From assembly GCA_002726935.1 (NCBI GenBank), contig PBTC01000044.1, positions 1-46,199 of the forward strand: DNA of 46,199 nucleotides, given 5' to 3'. Made by a program: the position numbers and the translations under genes. This DNA is from Candidatus Saccharimonadota bacterium. Its GTDB lineage: Bacteria > Patescibacteriota > Saccharimonadia > Saccharimonadales > Saccharimonadaceae. Numbering within the stretch: position 1 is the first letter of the stretch; each line of letters opens with the position of its first letter. Positions 1,550-28,135 of this stretch are shown here, in pieces. The notes beneath the pieces are model-generated. The model saw nothing but the letters and a program-made list of their open reading frames with translations. It did no database searches and had not been told where the DNA came from.

Positions 1550-2392
1550 GTGAAAAAGAAAATTCTCATCGGCATCATATCGGCTGGAATCCTGATCATT
1601 AGCGCTTTTGGTGCGTACTTTTTATTCGGACACTTCGGCCAGCGTGCCGACAGGGAAGAGCTGGACACAACACCGCTAATGGCGACGTCCGTCATAGAGA
1701 TGCTTGAGAGCAGTGAGCTTGCTGGTCTTGAGGGGTACGATCGTCAAGAGGCTTCGGGTGATAGTTTTGGCATTGTTGCCGCGACGCAGGGTCGAGATTA
1801 CCGCGTCTCTGTCGCCGCCGATGATGCGGCTCTTTATCAAAAAAGCGGTGATCCGCGTCAGTCTATTGAGCTGGCTGAATATGCTTCTGTCCGACAGCAA
1901 ACAGAAGGGTACTTCATCGGCCAAGGCCTTGATAAGTTGAGCAGCAGTAGCGACGCGACCGACCAGTACGCCGGCCGAGGAGTTATCTGCCAAGCCAACT
2001 TCGTCACGAGCGGTGTTGCGACGGTAGTGTATGCCTGTAGCGATGAAGCGGCGCTGAGCGCAGAATACGACCAGATCGAGCAGCTCCTTAATACATATAA
2101 AGAGACAGGAGCGCAGGTTGTCGATTTTGACGTCGCGAGCAGGACCTCCCTGCAGCGAGATGACATCGAAGGGGTCGTTTTGCATCTTAGCCCAGACAGG
2201 GCGGATGAGCAAAACAAAGGAGCGCAGTATTTATTTGGTGCAATTAATGGAGACTGGGAGTTTGTGGCTGACCTCACTAACGGCACAAGCCTTGGCAAGG
2301 TGAACACGACCCCTGAGGCGGAGGTGAAGATCGCCGATCCTAAATGGGATAATGTGCTGTACGAACTTTTGTATGGCGGAGGCAAAGAGTGA
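1550..2392 (+). CDS. Membrane-anchored extracytoplasmic protein encoded with a pilin
   Basis: This encodes 280 residues from a GTG start. A short basic N-terminus precedes one hydrophobic segment (about 4-28), which is an uncleaved anchor or signal peptide. The rest is a soluble, acidic domain of about 250 residues expected outside the membrane, with two cysteines in its middle part that could form a disulfide. No known domain is recognised. The TGA stop overlaps the ATG of the following pilin gene, so translation is probably coupled and the protein may serve the pilus system. That role is inference from the operon only. Confidence 0.75.
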   Translation: MKKKILIGIISAGILIISAFGAYFLFGHFGQRADREELDTTPLMATSVIEMLESSELAGLEGYDRQEASGDSFGIVAATQGRDYRVSVAADDAALYQKSGDPRQSIELAEYASVRQQTEGYFIGQGLDKLSSSSDATDQYAGRGVICQANFVTSGVATVVYACSDEAALSAEYDQIEQLLNTYKETGAQVVDFDVASRTSLQRDDIEGVVLHLSPDRADEQNKGAQYLFGAINGDWEFVADLTNGTSLGKVNTTPEAEVKIADPKWDNVLYELLYGGGKE

Positions 2393-3843
2393 TGGTCCAT
2401 ACGAAGCGAGGCTTTACGCTGATCGAGCTGATTGTGATCATCGGTGTGATCGGTGTACTGGCGGCCGTAGCCGCCTGGGGTCTTGGCCGCTATCAGGAGG
2501 GTGCCCGTGATGCCGAGCGCGCAGCTGACGTCGCGGCGATTACCGAAGCGCTCGAACTGTACTACGATGAGAATGGTGAGTATCCCAGCTGTAGCGCTTT
2601 GACTGGATCGGCTCCGAGCGTCGCAGAACAGCTGAACGTCGAGGAAGGGGCCTTGAGGTCGCCGCAGTCGAGCACTCAAAATGCGGTGCTTTGTAGCGCC
2701 CTTGCTGAAGGGTCAGAAGATGGCTACGCCTACGTCGGCGACGGCTCCGAGACTTGCCAGTCGGGGAATGCCTGTCTTGAATGGACGCTGCAGTATCGAA
2801 GTGAAGAAACGGGTGAGATTGTGAGTGTCAAAAGCCGCCGCAGCGCATCACTTGCTTCCTCTGGTGATGTGAATCTGACAGCTACGGTAAGTTCAAACAC
2901 AGCGATCAACTTAACGTGGAGTGCCGTCTCGAACGCCAGCTCGTATACGGTGGAGCGCAGCCTCAGTTCTAGCATGTCGGGTGCTGTCACTAATTCAACC
3001 ACGGCAACGAGTCAGTCTGTTTCGGGCTTGACGGCAGGTACTCGGTACTACTTCCGAGTCACCCCAGTATCAGGCACGCAACAGGGCGTGCCCGATACTG
3101 ACGACGCCACCACGACTATTAGCGCACCATCAGGTACGCTTGCTATCAGCTCATCGCTACAGTCAAGTAACTCAATTGCTCGTGGGCAGGCAGGTGCGGT
3201 GACCTGTGAACCGGGTACGACACTTGAGTACTCGTTCGGTTACCAAGGTCGTAATACAAATAGTAGTGTGTCGCTGTCCTACGGTTCGTGGGGAACAGCT
3301 GCGCTTCGAGACGTGACGGCTTCGCAGGGCTATAACTATACTTTTGAAGCACGGGCGCGGTGCGTTGGTCCAGATGCCACTAGTTCGCAGGTGACCAGTG
3401 CACGCACCAACGTGACGCGTCCGATCAACACGCCGCCGATGCCTAACTTTAATGGTGATACCAGCATGCAGGCCGGCTATCGCTATACGTTCTCGACCAG
3501 TTCATTTTGCCCAAGCGGTACGTGGGTTGACGGCGCGGTATATATCTACAACAGCGGCTATACCAGCCCCTCCACGGCTCATGTCTATCCATCGAACGGC
3601 GCCTACTACACCAACTCTTTCAATGAGTGGTGGTATCTTGGCTGGGCGGCGAACCAGACATGGGAAGACACCTACTACAACAGTTTTTATAGGTGTAAAA
3701 CCGATTTCACGACATCACCAAACTCTCCGACTCGACAGACGTATGTGACGATTGACTGTGAGCCACACCGACGCACATATAACACCTATCCCCGGTGCGA
3801 TAGCCATGGCCAAGACCCTAACTCTCTTCCTTGGGGTTATTAG
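2392..3843 (+). CDS. Type IV pilin-like (GspG-type) protein with fibronectin III domain
   Basis: A class III prepilin leader ends in RGFTLIEL (cleavage after Gly7, Glu at mature position 5), followed by the hydrophobic pilin helix and a GspG-like segment (YYDENGEYPSC). Residues about 157-240 form a fibronectin type III-like domain with the typical W...V..A..Y.V and Y.FRV strands. The last 240 residues are rich in Tyr, Trp, Thr and paired Cys and look like further beta domains. At 483 residues it is three times the size of a normal pilin, so it is more likely a minor or adhesive subunit than the main shaft protein. The ATG at 2392 overlaps the upstream stop (TGATG). A GTG at 2389 is the alternative start; GGAGG at 2378-2382 fits both. 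Confidence 0.85.
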   Translation: MVHTKRGFTLIELIVIIGVIGVLAAVAAWGLGRYQEGARDAERAADVAAITEALELYYDENGEYPSCSALTGSAPSVAEQLNVEEGALRSPQSSTQNAVLCSALAEGSEDGYAYVGDGSETCQSGNACLEWTLQYRSEETGEIVSVKSRRSASLASSGDVNLTATVSSNTAINLTWSAVSNASSYTVERSLSSSMSGAVTNSTTATSQSVSGLTAGTRYYFRVTPVSGTQQGVPDTDDATTTISAPSGTLAISSSLQSSNSIARGQAGAVTCEPGTTLEYSFGYQGRNTNSSVSLSYGSWGTAALRDVTASQGYNYTFEARARCVGPDATSSQVTSARTNVTRPINTPPMPNFNGDTSMQAGYRYTFSTSSFCPSGTWVDGAVYIYNSGYTSPSTAHVYPSNGAYYTNSFNEWWYLGWAANQTWEDTYYNSFYRCKTDFTTSPNSPTRQTYVTIDCEPHRRTYNTYPRCDSHGQDPNSLPWGY

Positions 3844-9857: not shown

Positions 9858-9883
9858 ATGGATAGGGCAAAATGGTTATGCTA

Positions 9884-9892
9884 TGCTATAAC
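9884..9892 (+). promoter_or_regulatory. Extended -10 that sets the pilin start
   Basis: TGCTATAAC is followed by 6 nt and then ATG 9899. This makes the upstream in-frame ATG at 9872 untranscribed and argues for a leaderless mRNA. Confidence 0.6.
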
Positions 9893-9898
9893 CAGCAT

Positions 9899-10714
9899 AT
9901 GAAACTACTAAAGTCACTCCCAACGGCGCTTCATCGAGGATTCACCATTGTTGAATTGGCGGTTGTAATTGTTGTGATCGGTATCCTAGCGGGTGTGGTG
10001 ATTGTCGGTTACGGCACCTGGAATCGCTCGGTAGCTGAAGCGACACTGAAGAATGATCTGCAGGCAGTACTAGGTGCAATGGAAGATGCGCGAACGTTTG
10101 AAAATTCCTATCCCAGTAGCCTTCCGTCGACGTATGCTCCATCGGATAATGTTAACATCCAGCGTGACAGTCGTAGCAATGCCAAGCGCTTTTGCTTTAC
10201 TGCGACGTCAACTACTCAAAGTTCACTGAGTTTTTACATTGCGAGCAACCAGTCAGACCCTAAAACGGGGTCTTGTTCGGCTAACTGGAGCCCGCCCGTC
10301 GTGTCGCTTCCCGTTCCGTCAGCTGTCCAAAGTGCGGGCAGCTATTCTTATCCAGGTGGCCCGACAGAATTTGGTGCCGCTCATTATGGCGATTCAGTCG
10401 CATTTGGCTGGAATGACCCAACCACTACTGGTGGGCAGCCGATTGAGGCATTTCGATTACGCTTTGACCTCGTGAGCCCTTGTAGCGCACAAAATGATTA
10501 CGTGCTTGAAGTCGCCCGTCTTAACAATGGGCAATCATTCAGTGGCAGTAACTACGGATTAAGCCGTAGTTCGACTGGCATGTATGCAATATCGGTATCG
10601 ACGCCCCTGGGTACCTGTACGGTAGACGCGGGGCTTGGTGCTATTTATGTTTCAGCAAAAACTGTCAATGGCTATGGTGCAGAGCGACAATACTTTGTCG
10701 AGCTGCAGAATTAG
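9899..10714 (+). CDS. Type IV pilin-like protein
   Basis: This encodes 271 residues. The prepilin site is HRGFTIVELAVVIVVIGIL, with cleavage between Gly and Phe and Glu at mature position 5, followed by the hydrophobic alpha-1 helix. The head begins with a pilin disulfide element (KRFCFTAT ... GSC) also seen in the pilin at 25142. Residues after about 150 form a separate beta-rich domain with two further Cys that may be FN3-like. The start at 9899 is chosen because a TGCTATAAC -10 box ends 6 nt upstream; an in-frame ATG at 9872 lies upstream of the promoter. There is no SD. It is followed 46 bp later by a PilX-like gene. Confidence 0.85.
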   Translation: MKLLKSLPTALHRGFTIVELAVVIVVIGILAGVVIVGYGTWNRSVAEATLKNDLQAVLGAMEDARTFENSYPSSLPSTYAPSDNVNIQRDSRSNAKRFCFTATSTTQSSLSFYIASNQSDPKTGSCSANWSPPVVSLPVPSAVQSAGSYSYPGGPTEFGAAHYGDSVAFGWNDPTTTGGQPIEAFRLRFDLVSPCSAQNDYVLEVARLNNGQSFSGSNYGLSRSSTGMYAISVSTPLGTCTVDAGLGAIYVSAKTVNGYGAERQYFVELQN

Positions 10715-10760: not shown

Positions 10761-11252
10761 ATGCGCAACCAAAGTAAGGGATATGGAATCATTCGGCCTA
10801 CACCAGGCTTTGCCTTGCCGACAGTTCTGATCGCTTCCGTCGTGCTGATGGTCATTCTGACAACGAGCGTGCAGATTACGGTTGCCTCATCCACGTCGCT
10901 GGAAGACAACTATTATGAGCGAGCGGCCACCCTGGCTGCCGAGGCGGGGATAGAGCATGCACGCGCCTGCCTTGACTCGAATAACAATATCGCCCAATGG
11001 AACTCGTCGAGCCCATTACGACCCGGCTCTACCTGTAATGGCTATGCTGGGGGCGGTTGTCCCTCATCTTGCTTTATAGTGAATGGTGATGGTCTGCAGA
11101 CGACCTATACTGTCGGGACCGCCACGTCGCATGCCGGCGATATCATTTCGTTTAATTCCCTCGGCGAAGCGGATCGACTTAGAACCAGCACTGGTAGTGT
11201 CTGGCGCTCGTACACTTCACGAGTCGGTCACTCGGTGTGGCTTAATCAGTAA
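10761..11252 (+). CDS. PilX-like minor pilin (short scaffold form)
   Basis: This encodes 163 residues. After a basic leader, GFALPTVLIASVVLMVIL forms the pilin-type hydrophobic segment. It resembles the N-termini of PilX/GspK-type minor pilins, which lack the canonical Glu5. The first 155 residues align through their whole length with the N-terminal part of the giant pilin at 22475 (for example AAEAGIEHARACL with AAESGLVKAQVCL, and LRTSTGS.WR with LRTSTGTEWR). The proteins are therefore paralogues, and this one lacks the propeller and lectin. CATAAT at 10744-10749 gives a leader of only about 5 nt and no SD is seen. It is followed 12 bp later by the Mur-ligase-like gene. Confidence 0.8.
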   Translation: MRNQSKGYGIIRPTPGFALPTVLIASVVLMVILTTSVQITVASSTSLEDNYYERAATLAAEAGIEHARACLDSNNNIAQWNSSSPLRPGSTCNGYAGGGCPSSCFIVNGDGLQTTYTVGTATSHAGDIISFNSLGEADRLRTSTGSVWRSYTSRVGHSVWLNQ

Positions 11253-20690: not shown

Positions 20691-21218
20691 ATGGAATTAT
20701 TGCAGAAACTAGAGCACGTGATCCTTAGATGGGTAAAAAACGTCCCGCATCTTCCGGTCAGTCTACGACGATGGCTTGGGGTGAACATTTGGTGGATTAT
20801 CCTGATCGGGGTGATTATTAACGGAATTTGGATATTGTTTCAAATTGTTGGCATCTTTGGCATGATCGCATTTCTTGGTTCGCCAGGGGCAACCTATCAG
20901 ATTGTTTCAACGATTACCTCGTGGAGCATCGTGACGAGTACAGTAGGCACTTTCTTTACTATAGTTGTCACTATCCTGAGCGGACTGGCGATTCAACCAC
21001 TACAGTCACGCTTGAAGAAGGGCTGGGTTCTCTTGTTTTCTGCTTGGTTGGTCAGTATCATCGGAGTCATCGTGGGAGCAGTCTTATCGCTGAATCCGGT
21101 ATTCTTTGTCATTAACCTGCTGTTTGGGGCGATCTTTACGACCTTCCTTGGATATGTCCTGTTCGAGTTGCACGGTCAATTTGCCCACGAGCCAAAAAAG
21201 ACGAAAACTCGCCGCTAA
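20691..21218 (+). CDS. Membrane protein, unknown function
   Basis: This encodes 175 residues with a polar first 30 residues and four hydrophobic segments (about 33-58, 70-98, 112-132, 136-158), ending in a basic tail. The family is not recognised. GAAGGAG is 6 nt before the ATG. It converges on the pilin gene at 21215 with a 4-bp overlap of the stop codons, so transcription of the two would collide. Confidence 0.7.
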   Translation: MELLQKLEHVILRWVKNVPHLPVSLRRWLGVNIWWIILIGVIINGIWILFQIVGIFGMIAFLGSPGATYQIVSTITSWSIVTSTVGTFFTIVVTILSGLAIQPLQSRLKKGWVLLFSAWLVSIIGVIVGAVLSLNPVFFVINLLFGAIFTTFLGYVLFELHGQFAHEPKKTKTRR

Positions 21219-22066
21219 GGGAGTGGCGTGACGCGGTCATTGTAGGCACCAATGCGTGTCGCGCGGAGCGTGCCCGAGTGACTAATGTCTCGTCCACCTG
21301 CCACAGCACTAGGGCTGAGGGTGATCTGGATGGTATCGACGTTGGTGAGTGCTGATTGGCGTGTGCTAAGGTTTTGGCTGCTCGCATTAGTATTCTCGGT
21401 GGTGGTCTGAGCGGAGTTGTAATATCGAATCTGCAAGCCTGCATAGGTGATGTCATCGAGCACACGGACATCGGTTGTTCGGCAGAAGGTCGCGGTGGCA
21501 CCTTCCGAGCAACTTGGCTGTTGCCACGGCACCTGGCCTGAGCATCCAGCACTGGTGTAATTCGACGGCATCATCGTCCGACGCCATAGGCTAGAGACAC
21601 CATCAGTCTCTTTGATGAAGTAAACGATATTGAACGTCATCACCTGATTCTGTGCAATGTCACTACTGGTGCACGCATGGGGTGAGTTGATGAGATAGAT
21701 GGGGGTGCGAGATGCACTGGATGGGTTTTCGGAGGTCGCAAAGGCGTTTAATATCAAGCGGGACCCTCCTGTATCGACACTCTGAAAGCGTTGCGTATCA
21801 TCACTTGATCCTTGCGGAGCCGTGATTGAGGCAAGATTACTCTGAGCGAGGAAGGCTCCGCTGAGGCGAACATCTTGCTCGATGCGGTCGAGCGCGTCTT
21901 GCACGTCATAGGCCATCGTGTTCTGCGCGCGCGTGGCAACGGCGTCACCGGTCATGTAGATAATTGTTGCGATGAACCCGCCGATAGCCAAGATAACCAC
22001 CGGTGCAATGATCAGCATTTCAATGAGGGTGAAGCCTGAATTATTGCGGTCTTGCATAGATGGCAT
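21215..22066 (-). CDS. PilW-like minor pilin
   Basis: This encodes 283 residues with the prepilin motif SGFTLIEMLIIAPVVIL (cleavage G/F, Glu5 present). The long head has PilW-like features (D-V-Q-D-A-L-D-R-I-E-Q-D-V-R-L-S-G-A-F after the helix). PilW-type proteins belong to the tip/priming complex of type IV pili with PilV and PilX. The ATG at 22066 follows GGAGAGG by 9 nt and overlaps the upstream PilV-like gene by 26 bp; ATG 22057 and 22090 are alternatives. It is the second gene of a minor-pilin operon divergent from the giant PilX-like gene. Confidence 0.85.
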   Translation of the reverse strand: MPSMQDRNNSGFTLIEMLIIAPVVILAIGGFIATIIYMTGDAVATRAQNTMAYDVQDALDRIEQDVRLSGAFLAQSNLASITAPQGSSDDTQRFQSVDTGGSRLILNAFATSENPSSASRTPIYLINSPHACTSSDIAQNQVMTFNIVYFIKETDGVSSLWRRTMMPSNYTSAGCSGQVPWQQPSCSEGATATFCRTTDVRVLDDITYAGLQIRYYNSAQTTTENTNASSQNLSTRQSALTNVDTIQITLSPSAVAGGRDISHSGTLRATRIGAYNDRVTPLP

Positions 22067-22427
22067 GAGTGAGCGCCTCTCCTGTTCCATAGGTGACCGT
22101 GACGGTAACTAACGATAATGTGGGCCGAGTACTGTCGGGGCAGGTAATAGCAACGGTCACACGGGCGTTTGGCGGATTGTTATCCGAAGCGGTCGGTGTC
22201 GCGCTAGACAGAGGGGTATTCGCCGTACAGGGGGAAGTGGCATTTGCCGCATAGCGACGCATGTAATCGTACGCGAGGTTGCTTGCCTGAGTTTGCTGTA
22301 AGGCACCACCGCTATCGCGGATGATGGTCACGTAGAGTGTGTAGCCGGCAATCAGGAAGATGACTGCTATAAAAAGCGTCACCAGTAATTCTACCGCTGT
22401 AAAGCCATTACTATTTTTAGCAATCAT
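22041..22427 (-). CDS. PilV-like minor pilin
   Basis: This encodes 128 residues. The prepilin site is NSNGFTAVELLVTLFIAVIF (G/F cleavage and Glu5), followed by a small head with two Cys (TSPCTAN and TCPDSTR). The start at 22427 is set by the 9-residue leader and a TATGGT box 9 nt upstream on the minus strand. The frame is open further, but that region codes for the divergent gene. No SD is visible, so the leader is short or absent. It is followed by and overlaps the PilW-like gene. Confidence 0.8.
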   Translation of the reverse strand: MIAKNSNGFTAVELLVTLFIAVIFLIAGYTLYVTIIRDSGGALQQTQASNLAYDYMRRYAANATSPCTANTPLSSATPTASDNNPPNARVTVAITCPDSTRPTLSLVTVTVTYGTGEALTHAIYARPQ

Positions 22428-22474
22428 GGTATTCTTACCATAAGAGGTTTGATGAAAAAGAGCAAGGAATTCTT

Positions 22475-24736
22475 GTGAAACAAATGCGTGTTGTTCGGCG
22501 AATTTTTCCGCTGAAAGGCAGGGGATTTGCATTGCCGACTGTGCTGATTGCATCGGTGGTGATGCTGTCGATTCTTACCACGACGCTTATTGCCGTCGTG
22601 TCGAGCCGTGGTGCGCTGAGTTCGCAGTACTATCAGCAACTTGCGCGCACCGCCGCCGAAAGCGGACTGGTAAAAGCACAGGTGTGTTTGCAGGCCAGCA
22701 ACTATACGCCTCAGTGGACGGCTGCTCAGCCCCTTCGCCCTAACACCGACTGCTCGGGTAATGTTTTGTCGGGGGCGTCGGCCTACGTGCTCAGCAATAC
22801 GGGCGTACGGTCCACTTTTACGGTTGGCGCCGCATCGACGCTTGCAAATGGCGTTCAGCGGGTGTCTGTAAACGCGACGGCAAGTTTATTGCGGACGAGC
22901 ACAGGGACTGAATGGCGAACTTTTAGCGCCCAAACAAACGCGTTGGTGAGTGCACCGGTATCGTTTGAGCAGGTGACGTTTGGCTATACCAGTCAATCGG
23001 GTGCATTCTTTGCAACAATTGACGCTCAGGGTCGCCCTTACACCGTCGGCTACAATGGGCTGGGCCAGCTAGGTAATGGCACGACTCAGAACGTGGTAAC
23101 GCCGACACAGTTCATCTTGCCAGCTGGTGCACGGGCGCAGGCAATGTACAGCAACTTCTTGTCGGTGGGATATGCGCTCTTCGCGGTAACGCAAGACGGT
23201 CGATTGTTTGGTGCGGGCAATAATGATTCTGGCCAGCTGGGTAACGGAACTGTCTCCGCAACTCAATCGACGCCGGTCCAGTTTGGCCTACCGAGTGGAG
23301 TGACGGCAAGGTATGTGGCGCTATTGCGTCAATCAACTTTCGTGATTGGCAGTGACAACAATATTTATTCCGCCGGTGCGTGTGCCTACGGTCAGTTGGG
23401 CTCTGGCTATACCATTAGCGGTTGTACAAACCGGTCAACGAGAGTAAGAGTGGCGCTGCCGACAGTCAATACCAGCCAGCCCAACACTCTTCCTGTTGTC
23501 AACAGCGACTGGGTGCAGTCAACCAACTTGGCAGCCGATCGACACAATGTGTACGTCCGTATGCAGGGTGGTGCGGTGTACGGTTGGGGGGCGAACGAGT
23601 ATGGACAGCTAGGTAACGGTACGACAACCGATTCGGCAACTCCTGTGAAAATCGGGACATGGGGTGATGCCGGTCAGCCGCAAGCGACACAGCTGGCGTA
23701 TGATGGCGAAACGCTCTATGTCCTTGATTCTTCAGGCCAGGTGCATGCTGTCGGGAAAAATAACCTCGGGTCACTTGCAGGAGCCAAGGCCCCGATTATG
23801 GGAAGCACTGGATTCTGTTTAGATAACCCAGGTAACACGTCAACGATTCGTACGCGAATTAGAATTTATACGTGCAACAACTCTACTGCCCAGAAACTTG
23901 AGTGGACGTCCGAAGGCGAGTTGAAATTTAGGCCAAATAGCAGTAGTGAATTTTGTGTCGACAATGCGAATAACAGTAGCGCGAATGGTAATCCGATTCA
24001 GCTTTATACCTGCAACGGAACGGTCGCTCAAAAATGGCAGTATCGAGATGATGGGAGTATTTATCACCCGTCGACAGGCAGGTGTATCGATAATCCGGGC
24101 AACTCGGCAAGTTCGGGCACAGAAATCCAGCTGTATCAGTGCAATGCAACGCCTGCTCAAGCCTGGAACTTGCAGCCGACACTCGTGCCAGAGCGTGTGC
24201 CAATCCCTGCAAGCTCTGGGCGGGTAACGCGAATCACGACCGACCAGTGGTCGACATTATTCCTTACCGAGGACGGCAAAGTCTGGGGTGCAGGTGGCAA
24301 CGAAAGGGGCATGCTGGGAAGGGGGTCGGCCAATGTGATGAACCCTGCACTGAGCCAGTTTATTCTGCCATCAGGCAGGACGGCGGTCGACTTTTATACC
24401 ACGAAAGCTGGTGTGACAAATTCCGAGTATGGAAATACGTATGTGATCCTCGATGACGGTAGTGTCTATGGCGCCGGTGCGAATACTTTTGGCCAGCTAG
24501 GTATCGGGACAACCTCGACACAGGAAAATACGCCGCGTCGTATGAACCTGCCGAGCGGGGTGAGGGCTCGCAGTGTACAGTCAGGGCTGGGAACGACGCT
24601 TGTCTTGACTGATCAGGGGCGAATATACACCGTCGGCAACAACCAGCACGGACAGCTGGGGGATGGCACGACCAATAATAGCTCGACGCCAAAAGCGAAC
24701 ATCTACACAAACGTTGTACCGGTAACCTACTATTAG
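22475..24736 (+). CDS. Giant PilX-like pilin with RCC1-type propeller and inserted ricin-type lectin
   Basis: This encodes 753 residues. Residues 1-165 are a PilX-like scaffold with the prepilin-type segment RGFALPTVLIASVVML (cleavage after Gly17). From about 185 on there are eight RCC1/BNR-type motifs (GYNGLGQLGNGT, GNNDSGQLGNGT, GANEYGQLGNGT and so on) at about 189, 244, 296, 367, 422, 602, 663 and 716, predicting a beta-propeller. Between the fifth and sixth, residues about 446-567 form a ricin-B beta-trefoil: three FC(L/V)DN or RCIDN repeats with C-x-x-x and QxW-like ends (AQKLEW, AQKWQY, AQAWNL). The likely role is a pilus-tip adhesin that binds glycans. The GTG has AAGGAA 5 nt upstream. 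It is divergent from the PilV/PilW-like genes. Confidence 0.88.
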   Translation: MKQMRVVRRIFPLKGRGFALPTVLIASVVMLSILTTTLIAVVSSRGALSSQYYQQLARTAAESGLVKAQVCLQASNYTPQWTAAQPLRPNTDCSGNVLSGASAYVLSNTGVRSTFTVGAASTLANGVQRVSVNATASLLRTSTGTEWRTFSAQTNALVSAPVSFEQVTFGYTSQSGAFFATIDAQGRPYTVGYNGLGQLGNGTTQNVVTPTQFILPAGARAQAMYSNFLSVGYALFAVTQDGRLFGAGNNDSGQLGNGTVSATQSTPVQFGLPSGVTARYVALLRQSTFVIGSDNNIYSAGACAYGQLGSGYTISGCTNRSTRVRVALPTVNTSQPNTLPVVNSDWVQSTNLAADRHNVYVRMQGGAVYGWGANEYGQLGNGTTTDSATPVKIGTWGDAGQPQATQLAYDGETLYVLDSSGQVHAVGKNNLGSLAGAKAPIMGSTGFCLDNPGNTSTIRTRIRIYTCNNSTAQKLEWTSEGELKFRPNSSSEFCVDNANNSSANGNPIQLYTCNGTVAQKWQYRDDGSIYHPSTGRCIDNPGNSASSGTEIQLYQCNATPAQAWNLQPTLVPERVPIPASSGRVTRITTDQWSTLFLTEDGKVWGAGGNERGMLGRGSANVMNPALSQFILPSGRTAVDFYTTKAGVTNSEYGNTYVILDDGSVYGAGANTFGQLGIGTTSTQENTPRRMNLPSGVRARSVQSGLGTTLVLTDQGRIYTVGNNQHGQLGDGTTNNSSTPKANIYTNVVPVTYY

Positions 24737-24799: not shown

Positions 24800-24874
24800 T
24801 GGGGATTGGCCAAGTGGTAAGGCACCAGGTTTTGGTCCTGGCATTCGGGGGTTCGAATCCCTCATCCCCAGCCA
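24800..24874 (+). tRNA. tRNA-Gln (anticodon TTG)
   Basis: This 75-nt tRNA has acceptor TGGGGAT/ATCCCCA, stem CCAGG/CCTGG around loop TTTTGGT, discriminator G and encoded CCA. It decodes CAA/CAG. Confidence 0.95.
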
Positions 24875-25141: not shown

Positions 25142-26122
25142 ATGGCGCGAAAGGCATCACGCACCAGTCACGAGCGGCAGTCCGACTCCTCAGGAGCCGC
25201 TAACTTCGTAAAGGGCGGCTTCACGATCGTGGAGCTACTCATCGTGATCGTCGTCATCGCGATCCTCGCCGCGATCACAATCGTTGCCTACAACGGCATC
25301 CAGAATCAGGCGAAGGCTGCGGCTGCGCAGGCTGCAGCGAAGCAAGCGGCGACAAAGATCCAGACGTACGCCGTCCGGAACGCCGATCAATACCCCGCTG
25401 ACCTTGCTGCAGCAGGTCTCAGCAACTCAGGCGACACTTCTTATCAATACCGCGTCGACAACTCGGCCACGCCGAAGACCTATTGCATCACTGCGACGAC
25501 CCAAAATACGAGCTACTACGTGTCCAGTAGCACGGGCTCTCCGGCCGTCGGCGCATGTGCCGGTCATGGGGCAAATGGTGTAGCGGCAATCACTAATCTG
25601 GCGAATAACCCGGGTGCTGAAGTGAACACCGCGAGCGCTTCCTCAGTTGGTAGCAACGGAACAACGATCGCTCGGGATACGACCACTCGTCGGTCAGGGA
25701 CGGGGAGCTTTCGCGCGACGGCAAACGGCTCAAGCGCCGGATTCACGACCTCGGTCGGGCTTTCTGGTGGCACGTCGTTTCGGTGGAGTGCGTATGTTCG
25801 GTCTGCGACAGCCACGACGATCAACACCTACGGGCAGACCTACGTTAGCGGCACATACACGCCTGTAGTGGTAGCGGGAGGTGACACAACCGTCTCCCTT
25901 CCGGCAAATACATGGACAAGGGTTTCTTGGACAGGCGTAAGCCCCCACGGCGCGTCCTACGTGGCGCTCGGATTTCTCATGAGCGGCGGAGCAACAGTGT
26001 TTATCGATGACGTGATGATCACGACCGGCACCGCGAACTACGCATTCGCAGACGGAGACTCGCCCGGCTGGATCTGGAACGGCGCAAGCAACGCCTCGAC
26101 TTCAACCGGTCCTCCACTCTAG
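25142..26122 (+). CDS. Type IV pilin with carbohydrate-binding / phage-tail-like head
   Basis: This encodes 326 residues. A long 26-residue leader ends at KGG, then FTIVELLIVIVVIAILAAIT gives the canonical alpha-1 helix. Residues about 85-145 form a small pilin head with the disulfide element TYCITAT...GAC. From about 151 (NLANNPGAEVNT) the protein has a jelly-roll domain of the CBM4/9-like type, with GTGSFRATA, W.RVSWTG and VFIDDVMIT, closing with FADGDSPGWIWNGASNASTS. That closing motif is typical of minor-tail proteins of actinobacterial phages and related carbohydrate-binding modules. Codon choice is clearly richer in G/C than in the pilin at 27551, which has the same N-terminal peptide. 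No SD; CATAGT lies 13 nt upstream. Confidence 0.85.
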   Translation: MARKASRTSHERQSDSSGAANFVKGGFTIVELLIVIVVIAILAAITIVAYNGIQNQAKAAAAQAAAKQAATKIQTYAVRNADQYPADLAAAGLSNSGDTSYQYRVDNSATPKTYCITATTQNTSYYVSSSTGSPAVGACAGHGANGVAAITNLANNPGAEVNTASASSVGSNGTTIARDTTTRRSGTGSFRATANGSSAGFTTSVGLSGGTSFRWSAYVRSATATTINTYGQTYVSGTYTPVVVAGGDTTVSLPANTWTRVSWTGVSPHGASYVALGFLMSGGATVFIDDVMITTGTANYAFADGDSPGWIWNGASNASTSTGPPL

Positions 26123-27515: not shown

Positions 27516-27543
27516 TTGACTGAGAATATATCTACGTTACAAT
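27516..27543 (+). promoter_or_regulatory. Promoter of pilin gene with leaderless start
   Basis: TTGACT, 16-bp spacer, TACAAT, then 7 nt to ATG 27551. An in-frame ATG at 27542 lies inside the -10 box and cannot be the start. Confidence 0.7.
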
Positions 27544-27550
27544 GGTGGTA

Positions 27551-28135
27551 ATGCTTGGACAAAACCATAAAGAACAGCGAGTGGGGGATGTTTTGAAGGG
27601 GAGAACTGATCTAAAGAAAGATGGATTTACGATCGTTGAACTATTGATCGTTATTGTCGTTATCGCAATTTTAGCCGCTATTACAGTAGTTGCCTACAAC
27701 GGCATCCAGGGAAGCGCGAGTGATTCAGCCGTGCAAAGCGATATCAATGCTTTTGTGAAAAAAATTAAAATGTATGAAGTAGAGAATAGCATGCCGCCTC
27801 CGGGTGGGAGCTACGATGGTGGAAATAACTCGACCGGTCCTGGTGGACTTTCGATCAAGGTGACGCAAGTTGCTTACCGCGAAGACGCGTACCAATGGTA
27901 CTACTGTCGCGCCGATGTTGCTCCATATAATTATGGTGTTGCTGCCGTCAGTAAGTCTGGCAAAGTGTTCGCCTACACGTCTCAGGATGGATGGTACAAC
28001 TATACCGGATCTTGGGGATCGAGTGGTATGAGCGGAACGATTTGCCCAGTTTTAACAGGCGTTTCAACTGCTAACTCAAGCTTTAGTTACGGCAAGGGTA
28101 CCGGCAACTGGTTCGGATGGACGACCACCAACTAG
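27551..28135 (+). CDS. Type IV pilin (possible major-type)
   Basis: This encodes 194 residues. The leader of about 25 residues is followed by DGFTIVELLIVIVVIAILAA and VAYNGIQ, identical over most of the helix to the pilin at 25142. The small head is rich in Tyr, Trp, Gly and Ser with Cys pairs (WYYCRAD, GTICPV). Its size, near that of ordinary pilins, and strong promoter make it a candidate main subunit, but that is inference. ATG 27551 is set by the -10 box ending 7 nt upstream. No SD. Confidence 0.85.
   Translation: MLGQNHKEQRVGDVLKGRTDLKKDGFTIVELLIVIVVIAILAAITVVAYNGIQGSASDSAVQSDINAFVKKIKMYEVENSMPPPGGSYDGGNNSTGPGGLSIKVTQVAYREDAYQWYYCRADVAPYNYGVAAVSKSGKVFAYTSQDGWYNYTGSWGSSGMSGTICPVLTGVSTANSSFSYGKGTGNWFGWTTTN

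What the first reader, a model, noticed from the sequence alone, without database searches (positions are those of the whole stretch)
22475..24736. Giant minor pilin: PilX scaffold carrying an RCC1-type propeller with a ricin-type lectin inserted between blades
Seen: a prepilin-type N-terminus, eight G-x-G...GQLGNGT motifs in two blocks (5 + 3), and between them a 120-residue triplet repeat with C(L/V)DN and QxW-like motifs. Known: PilY1/PilC tip adhesins use propellers; ricin-B trefoils bind sugars. Inference: a tip adhesin that displays a lectin from a propeller loop, suited to recognising an actinobacterial host surface. I know of no described protein with this order of domains.
Basis: partly seen in the sequence, partly recalled or inferred. 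Interest (0 to 1): 0.82.

Follow-up and report, generated by a model that had tools for sequence, protein, structure and literature searches.

The report
Pilus-tip propeller carrying a sugar-binding lectin
A tiny bacterium that probably lives on other bacteria encodes a giant pilus protein whose ring-shaped head carries an inserted sugar-binding lectin; it looks like the grip with which the pilus recognises its host, and is a lectin-bearing variant of a pilus protein (PilX2) already shown to promote host binding in a relative.

Summary
ORF 22475-24736 (+, 753 aa) has a prepilin-like N-terminus, a small pilin domain, eight RCC1-type units split 5 + 3, and a complete ricin-B/CBM13 beta-trefoil (aa 439-567, Pfam E 1e-24) inside unit 5. 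AlphaFold2 (pLDDT 86) gives a trefoil matching Streptomyces CBM13 at 1.0 A. The propeller is predicted to be eight-bladed, not seven: superposed on seven-bladed UVR8 it differs by 3.6 A or more, while a seven-unit control fits at 1.2-1.7 A. The architecture is not a one-off: about 20 of 198 sampled genomes of the family have a lectin-bearing version, in two clades with insertion points one loop apart, and two orthologues lack the lectin cleanly. The lectin is the fastest-diverging module (26% identity; propeller 45-47%). Literature: a minor pilin with a seven-bladed RCC1 propeller, PilX2 of Nanosynbacter lyticus TM7x, is known, and deleting it halves host binding; lectin-bearing modular pilins are known in Streptococcus sanguinis. 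So this is most likely a pilus-tip host adhesin: a new variant of a known kind. New are the lectin inserted in the propeller, the predicted eighth blade, and repeated use of this site. Tip location, sugar binding and host are inferred.

The parts
22475..24736 (+). Whole gene: lectin-bearing PilX-like modular minor pilin, 753 aa, GTG start; AAGGA at 22464-22468
22475..22525 (+). Leader peptide (aa 1-17, cleavage expected G17|F18; +4 Pro, +5 Thr, no Glu5)
   Evidence: sequence; invariant F18, L20, P21 in orthologues
22526..22948 (+). Pilin module: long N-terminal helix (aa 22-74 in the model) and small three-strand beta domain (aa 111-158)
   Evidence: AlphaFold2 model; 50% mean pairwise identity of the helix among orthologues
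22976..23782 (+). Propeller units 1-5 (aa 168-436); unit 5 is interrupted after its third strand
23789..24175 (+). Ricin-B/CBM13 beta-trefoil lectin (aa 439-567) inserted in unit 5; candidate sugar-site residues D450/Y465/Q473, D496/Y511/Q519, D539/Y554/Q562
24179..24697 (+). Fourth strand of unit 5 and propeller units 6-8 (aa 569-741); the last strand (736-740) is in the position expected to close the ring on blade 1
22041..22427 (-). Divergently transcribed PilV-like minor pilin, start inferred at 22427; homologue lies next to the PilX pair in Saccharibacteria 47-87
   Evidence: NCBIfam type_IV_pilV 2e-5, below its cut-off, N_methyl, linkage
21215..22090 (-). PilW/GspJ-like minor pilin; homologue (7e-70) linked to PilX in Saccharibacteria 47-87
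10761..11252 (+). Module-free paralogue of the PilX scaffold (163 aa, 41% identical to aa 16-154)

Best explanation
The gene encodes a PilX/GspK-type modular minor pilin. After cleavage at G17|F18 the N-terminal helix would pack into the pilus; with no Glu at +5 and a head of about 600 residues it most likely sits at the tip. The head is an RCC1-type propeller, predicted to have eight blades, and a ricin-B/CBM13 lectin hangs from blade 5, half a turn from the blade joined to the pilin, so it faces away from the filament. The lectin (three candidate sugar pockets), perhaps with the propeller, binds glycans on a neighbouring cell, most likely the host bacterium, so that pilus retraction can pull the cell in. 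Shown: domains, order, predicted folds, insertion point, recurrence in relatives, lectin-less orthologues, faster divergence of the lectin, pilus motor and platform genes in the genome. Inferred: tip location, ring closure, sugar binding, host recognition.
For: Domain matches. AlphaFold2 pLDDT 86: helix 22-74, trefoil about 93. Trefoil against CBM13 Z 24, 1.0 A; propeller against UVR8 Z 32. Eight units in the lectin clade; most non-pilin RCC1 proteins found have 7, 14 or 28. Seven-unit control fits UVR8 at 1.2-1.7 A, against 3.6-4.4 A here, with different solved chains matching units 1-7 or 2-8; idealised rings predict 2.9-3.5 A. Lectin-less orthologues L017/L018 show the insertion point. Lectin is the most divergent module. 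Two platform (PilC-type) genes with paired domains and several PilB/PilT-type ATPase genes in the genome; PilV- and PilW-like neighbours, linkage conserved in Saccharibacteria 47-87. TM7x PilX2, an RCC1-propeller minor pilin, is needed for normal host binding (PMC12206443). The K subunit of tip complexes lacks Glu5 and is bulky; lectin pilin PilC binds glycans (PMC9934059).
Against: No experiment on this protein. The host is unknown and the organism is known only as an assembly. The CBM13 Asn before the conserved Gln is Ala at all three sites, and several orthologues have lost the Asp or aromatic residue at one or more sites, so some lectins may not bind sugar. PilX_N is below threshold. Two lineages lack the lectin, so it is not essential to the pilin.
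Confidence: 0.62

Rival explanations
1. It is a tip adhesin, but the lectin binds environmental or biofilm polysaccharide (for example xylan-like, plant or EPS glycans), so it anchors the cell to surfaces rather than to a specific host.
For: The closest solved relatives include CBM13 domains of Streptomyces xylanase and arabinofuranosidase. Ricin-B lectins also occur in other secreted proteins of the family.
Against: Cultivated Saccharibacteria use T4P in host attachment, and the related PilX2 acts in host binding. Rapid lectin divergence fits changing partners better than a uniform polysaccharide.
Confidence: 0.2
2. The propeller is the real adhesin and the lectin is an accessory or non-binding insert (spacer, shield or decoy), tolerated and partly degenerating.
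For: TM7x PilX2 works in host binding and is described with only a propeller. L017/L018 lack the lectin and keep all eight units. Sugar-site residues are lost in several orthologues.
Against: In the window protein all three sites keep Asp, aromatic and Gln; the lectin is kept in most members of the clade and was probably acquired more than once.
Confidence: 0.15
3. The protein is not a pilus subunit but a membrane-anchored surface lectin that merely resembles a pilin at its N-terminus.
For: Non-canonical leader (no Glu5); Pfam pilin models do not reach threshold. TM7x PilX1/PilX2 also had no predicted PilD signal.
Against: Linkage to PilV/PilW-like genes, long helix plus small beta domain in the model, a module-free paralogue with the same N-terminus, and the pilus phenotype of TM7x PilX2.
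Confidence: 0.08

Closest known systems
PilX2 of Nanosynbacter lyticus TM7x (Saccharibacteria), PMC12206443
   Same: PilX-type minor pilin with a C-terminal RCC1 beta-propeller, non-canonical leader, pilus locus with PilV/PilW; proposed tip adhesin; deletion halves host binding
   Different: Described as seven-bladed, with no lectin reported; the window protein has eight units and a ricin-B lectin inside unit 5.
PilC (and PilB) of Streptococcus sanguinis, PMC9934059 and PMC8179133
   Same: Modular pilins with a bulky binding module grafted on a small pilin; PilC carries a lectin that binds glycans; tip location modelled
   Different: ConA-like lectin or vWA module grafted end-on; no propeller and no lectin within a propeller; canonical Glu5 in PilC
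PilY1/PilC tip adhesins (PF05567 propeller)
   Same: Propeller-based adhesin at the tip of type IV pili
   Different: PilY1 is not a pilin and has another propeller family; no PF05567 match in the window protein
RCC1/UVR8/BLIP-II propellers
   Same: Repeat sequence, four-stranded units, fold (Z 32 to UVR8)
   Different: The solved ones are seven-bladed (general knowledge); here eight units, predicted eight blades, with a domain inserted
CBM13 / R-type (ricin-B) lectins of Streptomyces xylanases
   Same: Complete beta-trefoil, 35-37% identity, rmsd 1.0-1.1 A, three Q-x-W subdomains with paired cysteines
   Different: There a C-terminal module of a secreted enzyme; here inserted in a propeller loop of a pilin; Asn before the Gln replaced by Ala

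Membership tests
PilX/GspK (K-type) minor pilin | Prepilin-like leader with hydrophobic helix | tested here: met
   KGRG|FALPT..., helix aa 22-74; weak NCBIfam prepilin match 1e-3, below its cut-off
PilX/GspK (K-type) minor pilin | No Glu at position +5 and bulky head | tested here: met
   Thr at +5; criterion from PMC9934059
PilX/GspK (K-type) minor pilin | PilX_N (PF14341) match above the gathering score | tested here: not met
   No match in the window protein; orthologue L005 E 0.25, 11.8 of 25.5 bits. Hence called PilX-like by features and linkage, not filed as a PilX_N member
PilX/GspK (K-type) minor pilin | Located at the pilus tip | not testable with these tools
   Needs microscopy or pilus fractionation
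PilX2 of TM7x | Prepilin-like N-terminus followed by an RCC1 propeller, linked to PilV/PilW genes | tested here: met
   PMC12206443
PilX2 of TM7x | Seven-bladed propeller without lectin | tested here: not met
   Eight units and a lectin
RCC1 repeat propeller | RCC1 repeats above cut-off | tested here: met
   PF00415 149 bits (cut-off 21.7), PF25390 191 bits (cut-off 150)
RCC1 repeat propeller | Seven blades | tested here: not met
   Eight units; rmsd to UVR8 3.6-4.4 A against 1.2-1.7 A for a seven-unit control; predicted model only
Ricin-B / CBM13 lectin | Beta-trefoil with three Q-x-W subdomains | tested here: met
   PF00652 87.6 bits (cut-off 29); Z 24, rmsd 1.0 A to CBM13
Ricin-B / CBM13 lectin | Sugar-contact residues (Asp, aromatic, Asn, Gln) | tested here: inconclusive
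   Asp, Tyr and Gln kept at three of three sites, Asn replaced by Ala at all three; positional assignment from general knowledge
Ricin-B / CBM13 lectin | Binds a carbohydrate | not testable with these tools
   Needs glycan array or calorimetry
PilY1 | PF05567 propeller | tested here: not met
   No match in the window protein at E 1. The genome search rang in no control either, so absence of PilY1 from the genome is not shown
Modular pilin (as defined in PMC8179133) | Pilin module with a grafted non-pilin functional domain | tested here: met
   definition in PMC8179133, though a formal N_methyl-type N-terminal match is missing

The most novel reading that the evidence does not exclude
In this family of Saccharibacteria the PilX propeller serves as a display platform on which a lectin is carried at the blade farthest from the pilus, was acquired at least twice at nearly the same place, diverges fastest and is sometimes lost, so that the lectin's sequence sets which host is recognised.
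Probability: 0.3. Interest if true: 0.75.

Novelty: new variant of a known kind. Interest (0 to 1): 0.52.

Why it matters
How ultrasmall epibiotic bacteria choose their hosts is open. A tip pilin that carries a recognisable, isolable, fast-diverging glycan-binding domain makes the question directly testable: the trefoils of many species can be expressed and read on glycan arrays, and the result compared with host identity. It also extends the modular-pilin idea from end-on grafts to a domain inserted within a propeller, and suggests an eight-bladed relative of the RCC1 fold.

Tried and rejected
Chance or assembly artefact: rejected, since many independent genomes share the architecture. Stand-alone lectin or lytic enzyme: rejected for this gene; such lectin proteins exist elsewhere in the family. 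First genome-contig scan with the single protein found nothing; the alignment scan worked. PilY1 genome search uninformative. PilX_N membership not reached. Promoter and terminator scans at or below chance level. Attempt to decide gain or loss of the lectin in clade A: the tree favours two losses, but one later gain is not rejected (p-AU 0.07). The lectin tree is too poorly supported to say whether the two clades got the same lectin. The sequence of TM7x PilX2 could not be fetched by name.

Full report
Observation. The ORF 22475-24736 (+) is real and reads as described. It starts with GTG six bases after AAGGA. Pfam gives RCC1 repeats (4.9e-44), an RCC1-like domain (4.3e-56) and a nearly full-length Ricin_B_lectin at aa 442-564 (1.0e-24). 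Eight GQLG-type motifs lie in blocks of five and three. The lectin is the only ricin-B match in this genome.

Origin. The window is contig 44 of a 1.34 Mb, 45-contig assembly.

Structure. AlphaFold2 with 15 sequences gives mean pLDDT 86 and pTM 0.75: helix 22-74, a small beta domain to 158, eight four-stranded units starting near residues 168, 221, 278, 352, 404, 584, 637 and 698, and a trefoil at 439-567 lying between the third and fourth strands of unit 5. VIA-align puts the trefoil at 1.0-1.1 A from Streptomyces CBM13 (Z about 24) and the propeller on UVR8 with Z 32.6 but rmsd 3.6-4.4 A.

Eight blades. Some solved seven-bladed chains align to model residues 162-659 (units 1-7), others to 220-748 (units 2-8). 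A seven-unit Flavobacterium RCC1 protein folded in the same way fits UVR8 at 1.2-1.7 A over about 355 residues, Z 57. Idealised seven- and eight-blade rings differ by 2.9-3.5 A over seven blades. In a scan of related proteins most non-pilin RCC1 proteins have 7, 14 or 28 units, whereas every full-length pilin of this clade has 8. I conclude that the model has eight blades. In an eight-blade ring, blade 5 lies opposite blade 1, which is joined to the pilin, so the lectin would face away from the filament (inference).

Relatives. In 198 genomes of the family, 147 have some match (many only to the pilin part) and about 15 genomes have near full-length lectin-bearing orthologues. Pfam PF00652 places a lectin within such a pilin ORF in 19 of 198 genomes (read together). 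Four further orthologues (L009, L011, L014, L016) have weaker lectins found only by a profile that included them, so these four count as probable. Matches at 1e-30 in a class-wide sample of 393 genomes all fall in the same family. Two orthologues (L017, L018) have all eight units and no lectin; in L018 unit 5 runs on as an ordinary repeat (GQLGLGTTTYND...), which shows the insertion point directly.

Evolution. On a tree without lectin columns, lectin bearers form two groups: clade A (the window's) and clade B, whose nearest relatives lack it. In clade B the lectin comes after the fourth strand of unit 5, one loop later than in A, which suggests a separate insertion. In clade A the tree favours two losses, but a single gain is not rejected (p-AU 0.07). 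The lectin is the most divergent module: mean pairwise identity 26%, against 45-47% for the propeller blocks and 50% for the pilin helix. In Saccharibacteria 47-87 two tandem copies are 88% identical in the pilin, 62-67% in the propeller and 43% in the lectin.

Sugar sites. The window lectin keeps Asp, aromatic and Gln in all three subdomains and the paired cysteines, but has Ala in place of the Asn that precedes the Gln in CBM13. Several orthologues have lost residues at one or more sites. Binding is therefore plausible but open.

Pilus context. PilV- and PilW-like genes lie divergently next to the gene and are linked to it in 47-87. In the other named orthologues no such linkage was found within the DNA held. 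The genome has two platform genes with paired PF00482 domains and several PF00437 ATPases, in line with the two pilus systems of TM7x.

Literature. TM7x PilX2 is a minor pilin with a hepta-bladed RCC1 propeller; its deletion reduced host-bound cells from about 10.6% to 4.6%, and it was proposed as the adhesin (PMC12206443). Modular pilins with lectin or vWA modules and tip location are established (PMC8179133; PMC9934059). No paper found combines a pilin, an RCC1 propeller and a ricin lectin; the library lacks most subscription journals.

Verdict. This is a lectin-bearing, probably eight-bladed variant of the PilX2-type adhesive pilin. The architecture is solid; tip location, sugar binding and host role are inference by analogy.

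Noticed in passing
L047:507-4496, L038:174-3047, L052:183-3002: Pilins with 21 and 14 RCC1 units, i.e. apparently three or two seven-bladed propellers on one prepilin-like N-terminus.
   Followed up: no
L040:3313-4251 and L068:1377-4154: PilX-like pilins carrying phage tail collar and Gp10 C-terminal domains (Pfam collar 2e-17 and 4.5e-55), i.e. tail-fibre-like modules on a pilin.
   Followed up: partly
L044, L055, L057, L067: PilX-like pilins carrying a glycine-rich domain (PF21722) instead of a propeller.
   Followed up: no
L092:7652-12259: Tandem copies of the gene in Saccharibacteria 47-87; the second is interrupted by an in-frame TGA, and the two lectins differ far more than the pilins.
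   Followed up: partly
L090/L185 (genome G032): The genome whose PilX lacks the lectin (L018) encodes a separate, apparently membrane-anchored ricin-B lectin protein of 428 aa.
   Followed up: no
L199, L201, L203, L207, L213: Proteins of other genomes of the family with a conserved region resembling a cell-wall hydrolase (not tested) followed by two to four ricin-B lectins.
   Followed up: no
window 2389-3843, 9872-10714, 25142-26122, 27542-28135: Four more prepilin-like genes in the same 46 kb, so pilin genes are dense here.
   Followed up: partly
window 24800-24874: tRNA-Gln (ttg) directly downstream of the gene.
   Followed up: no
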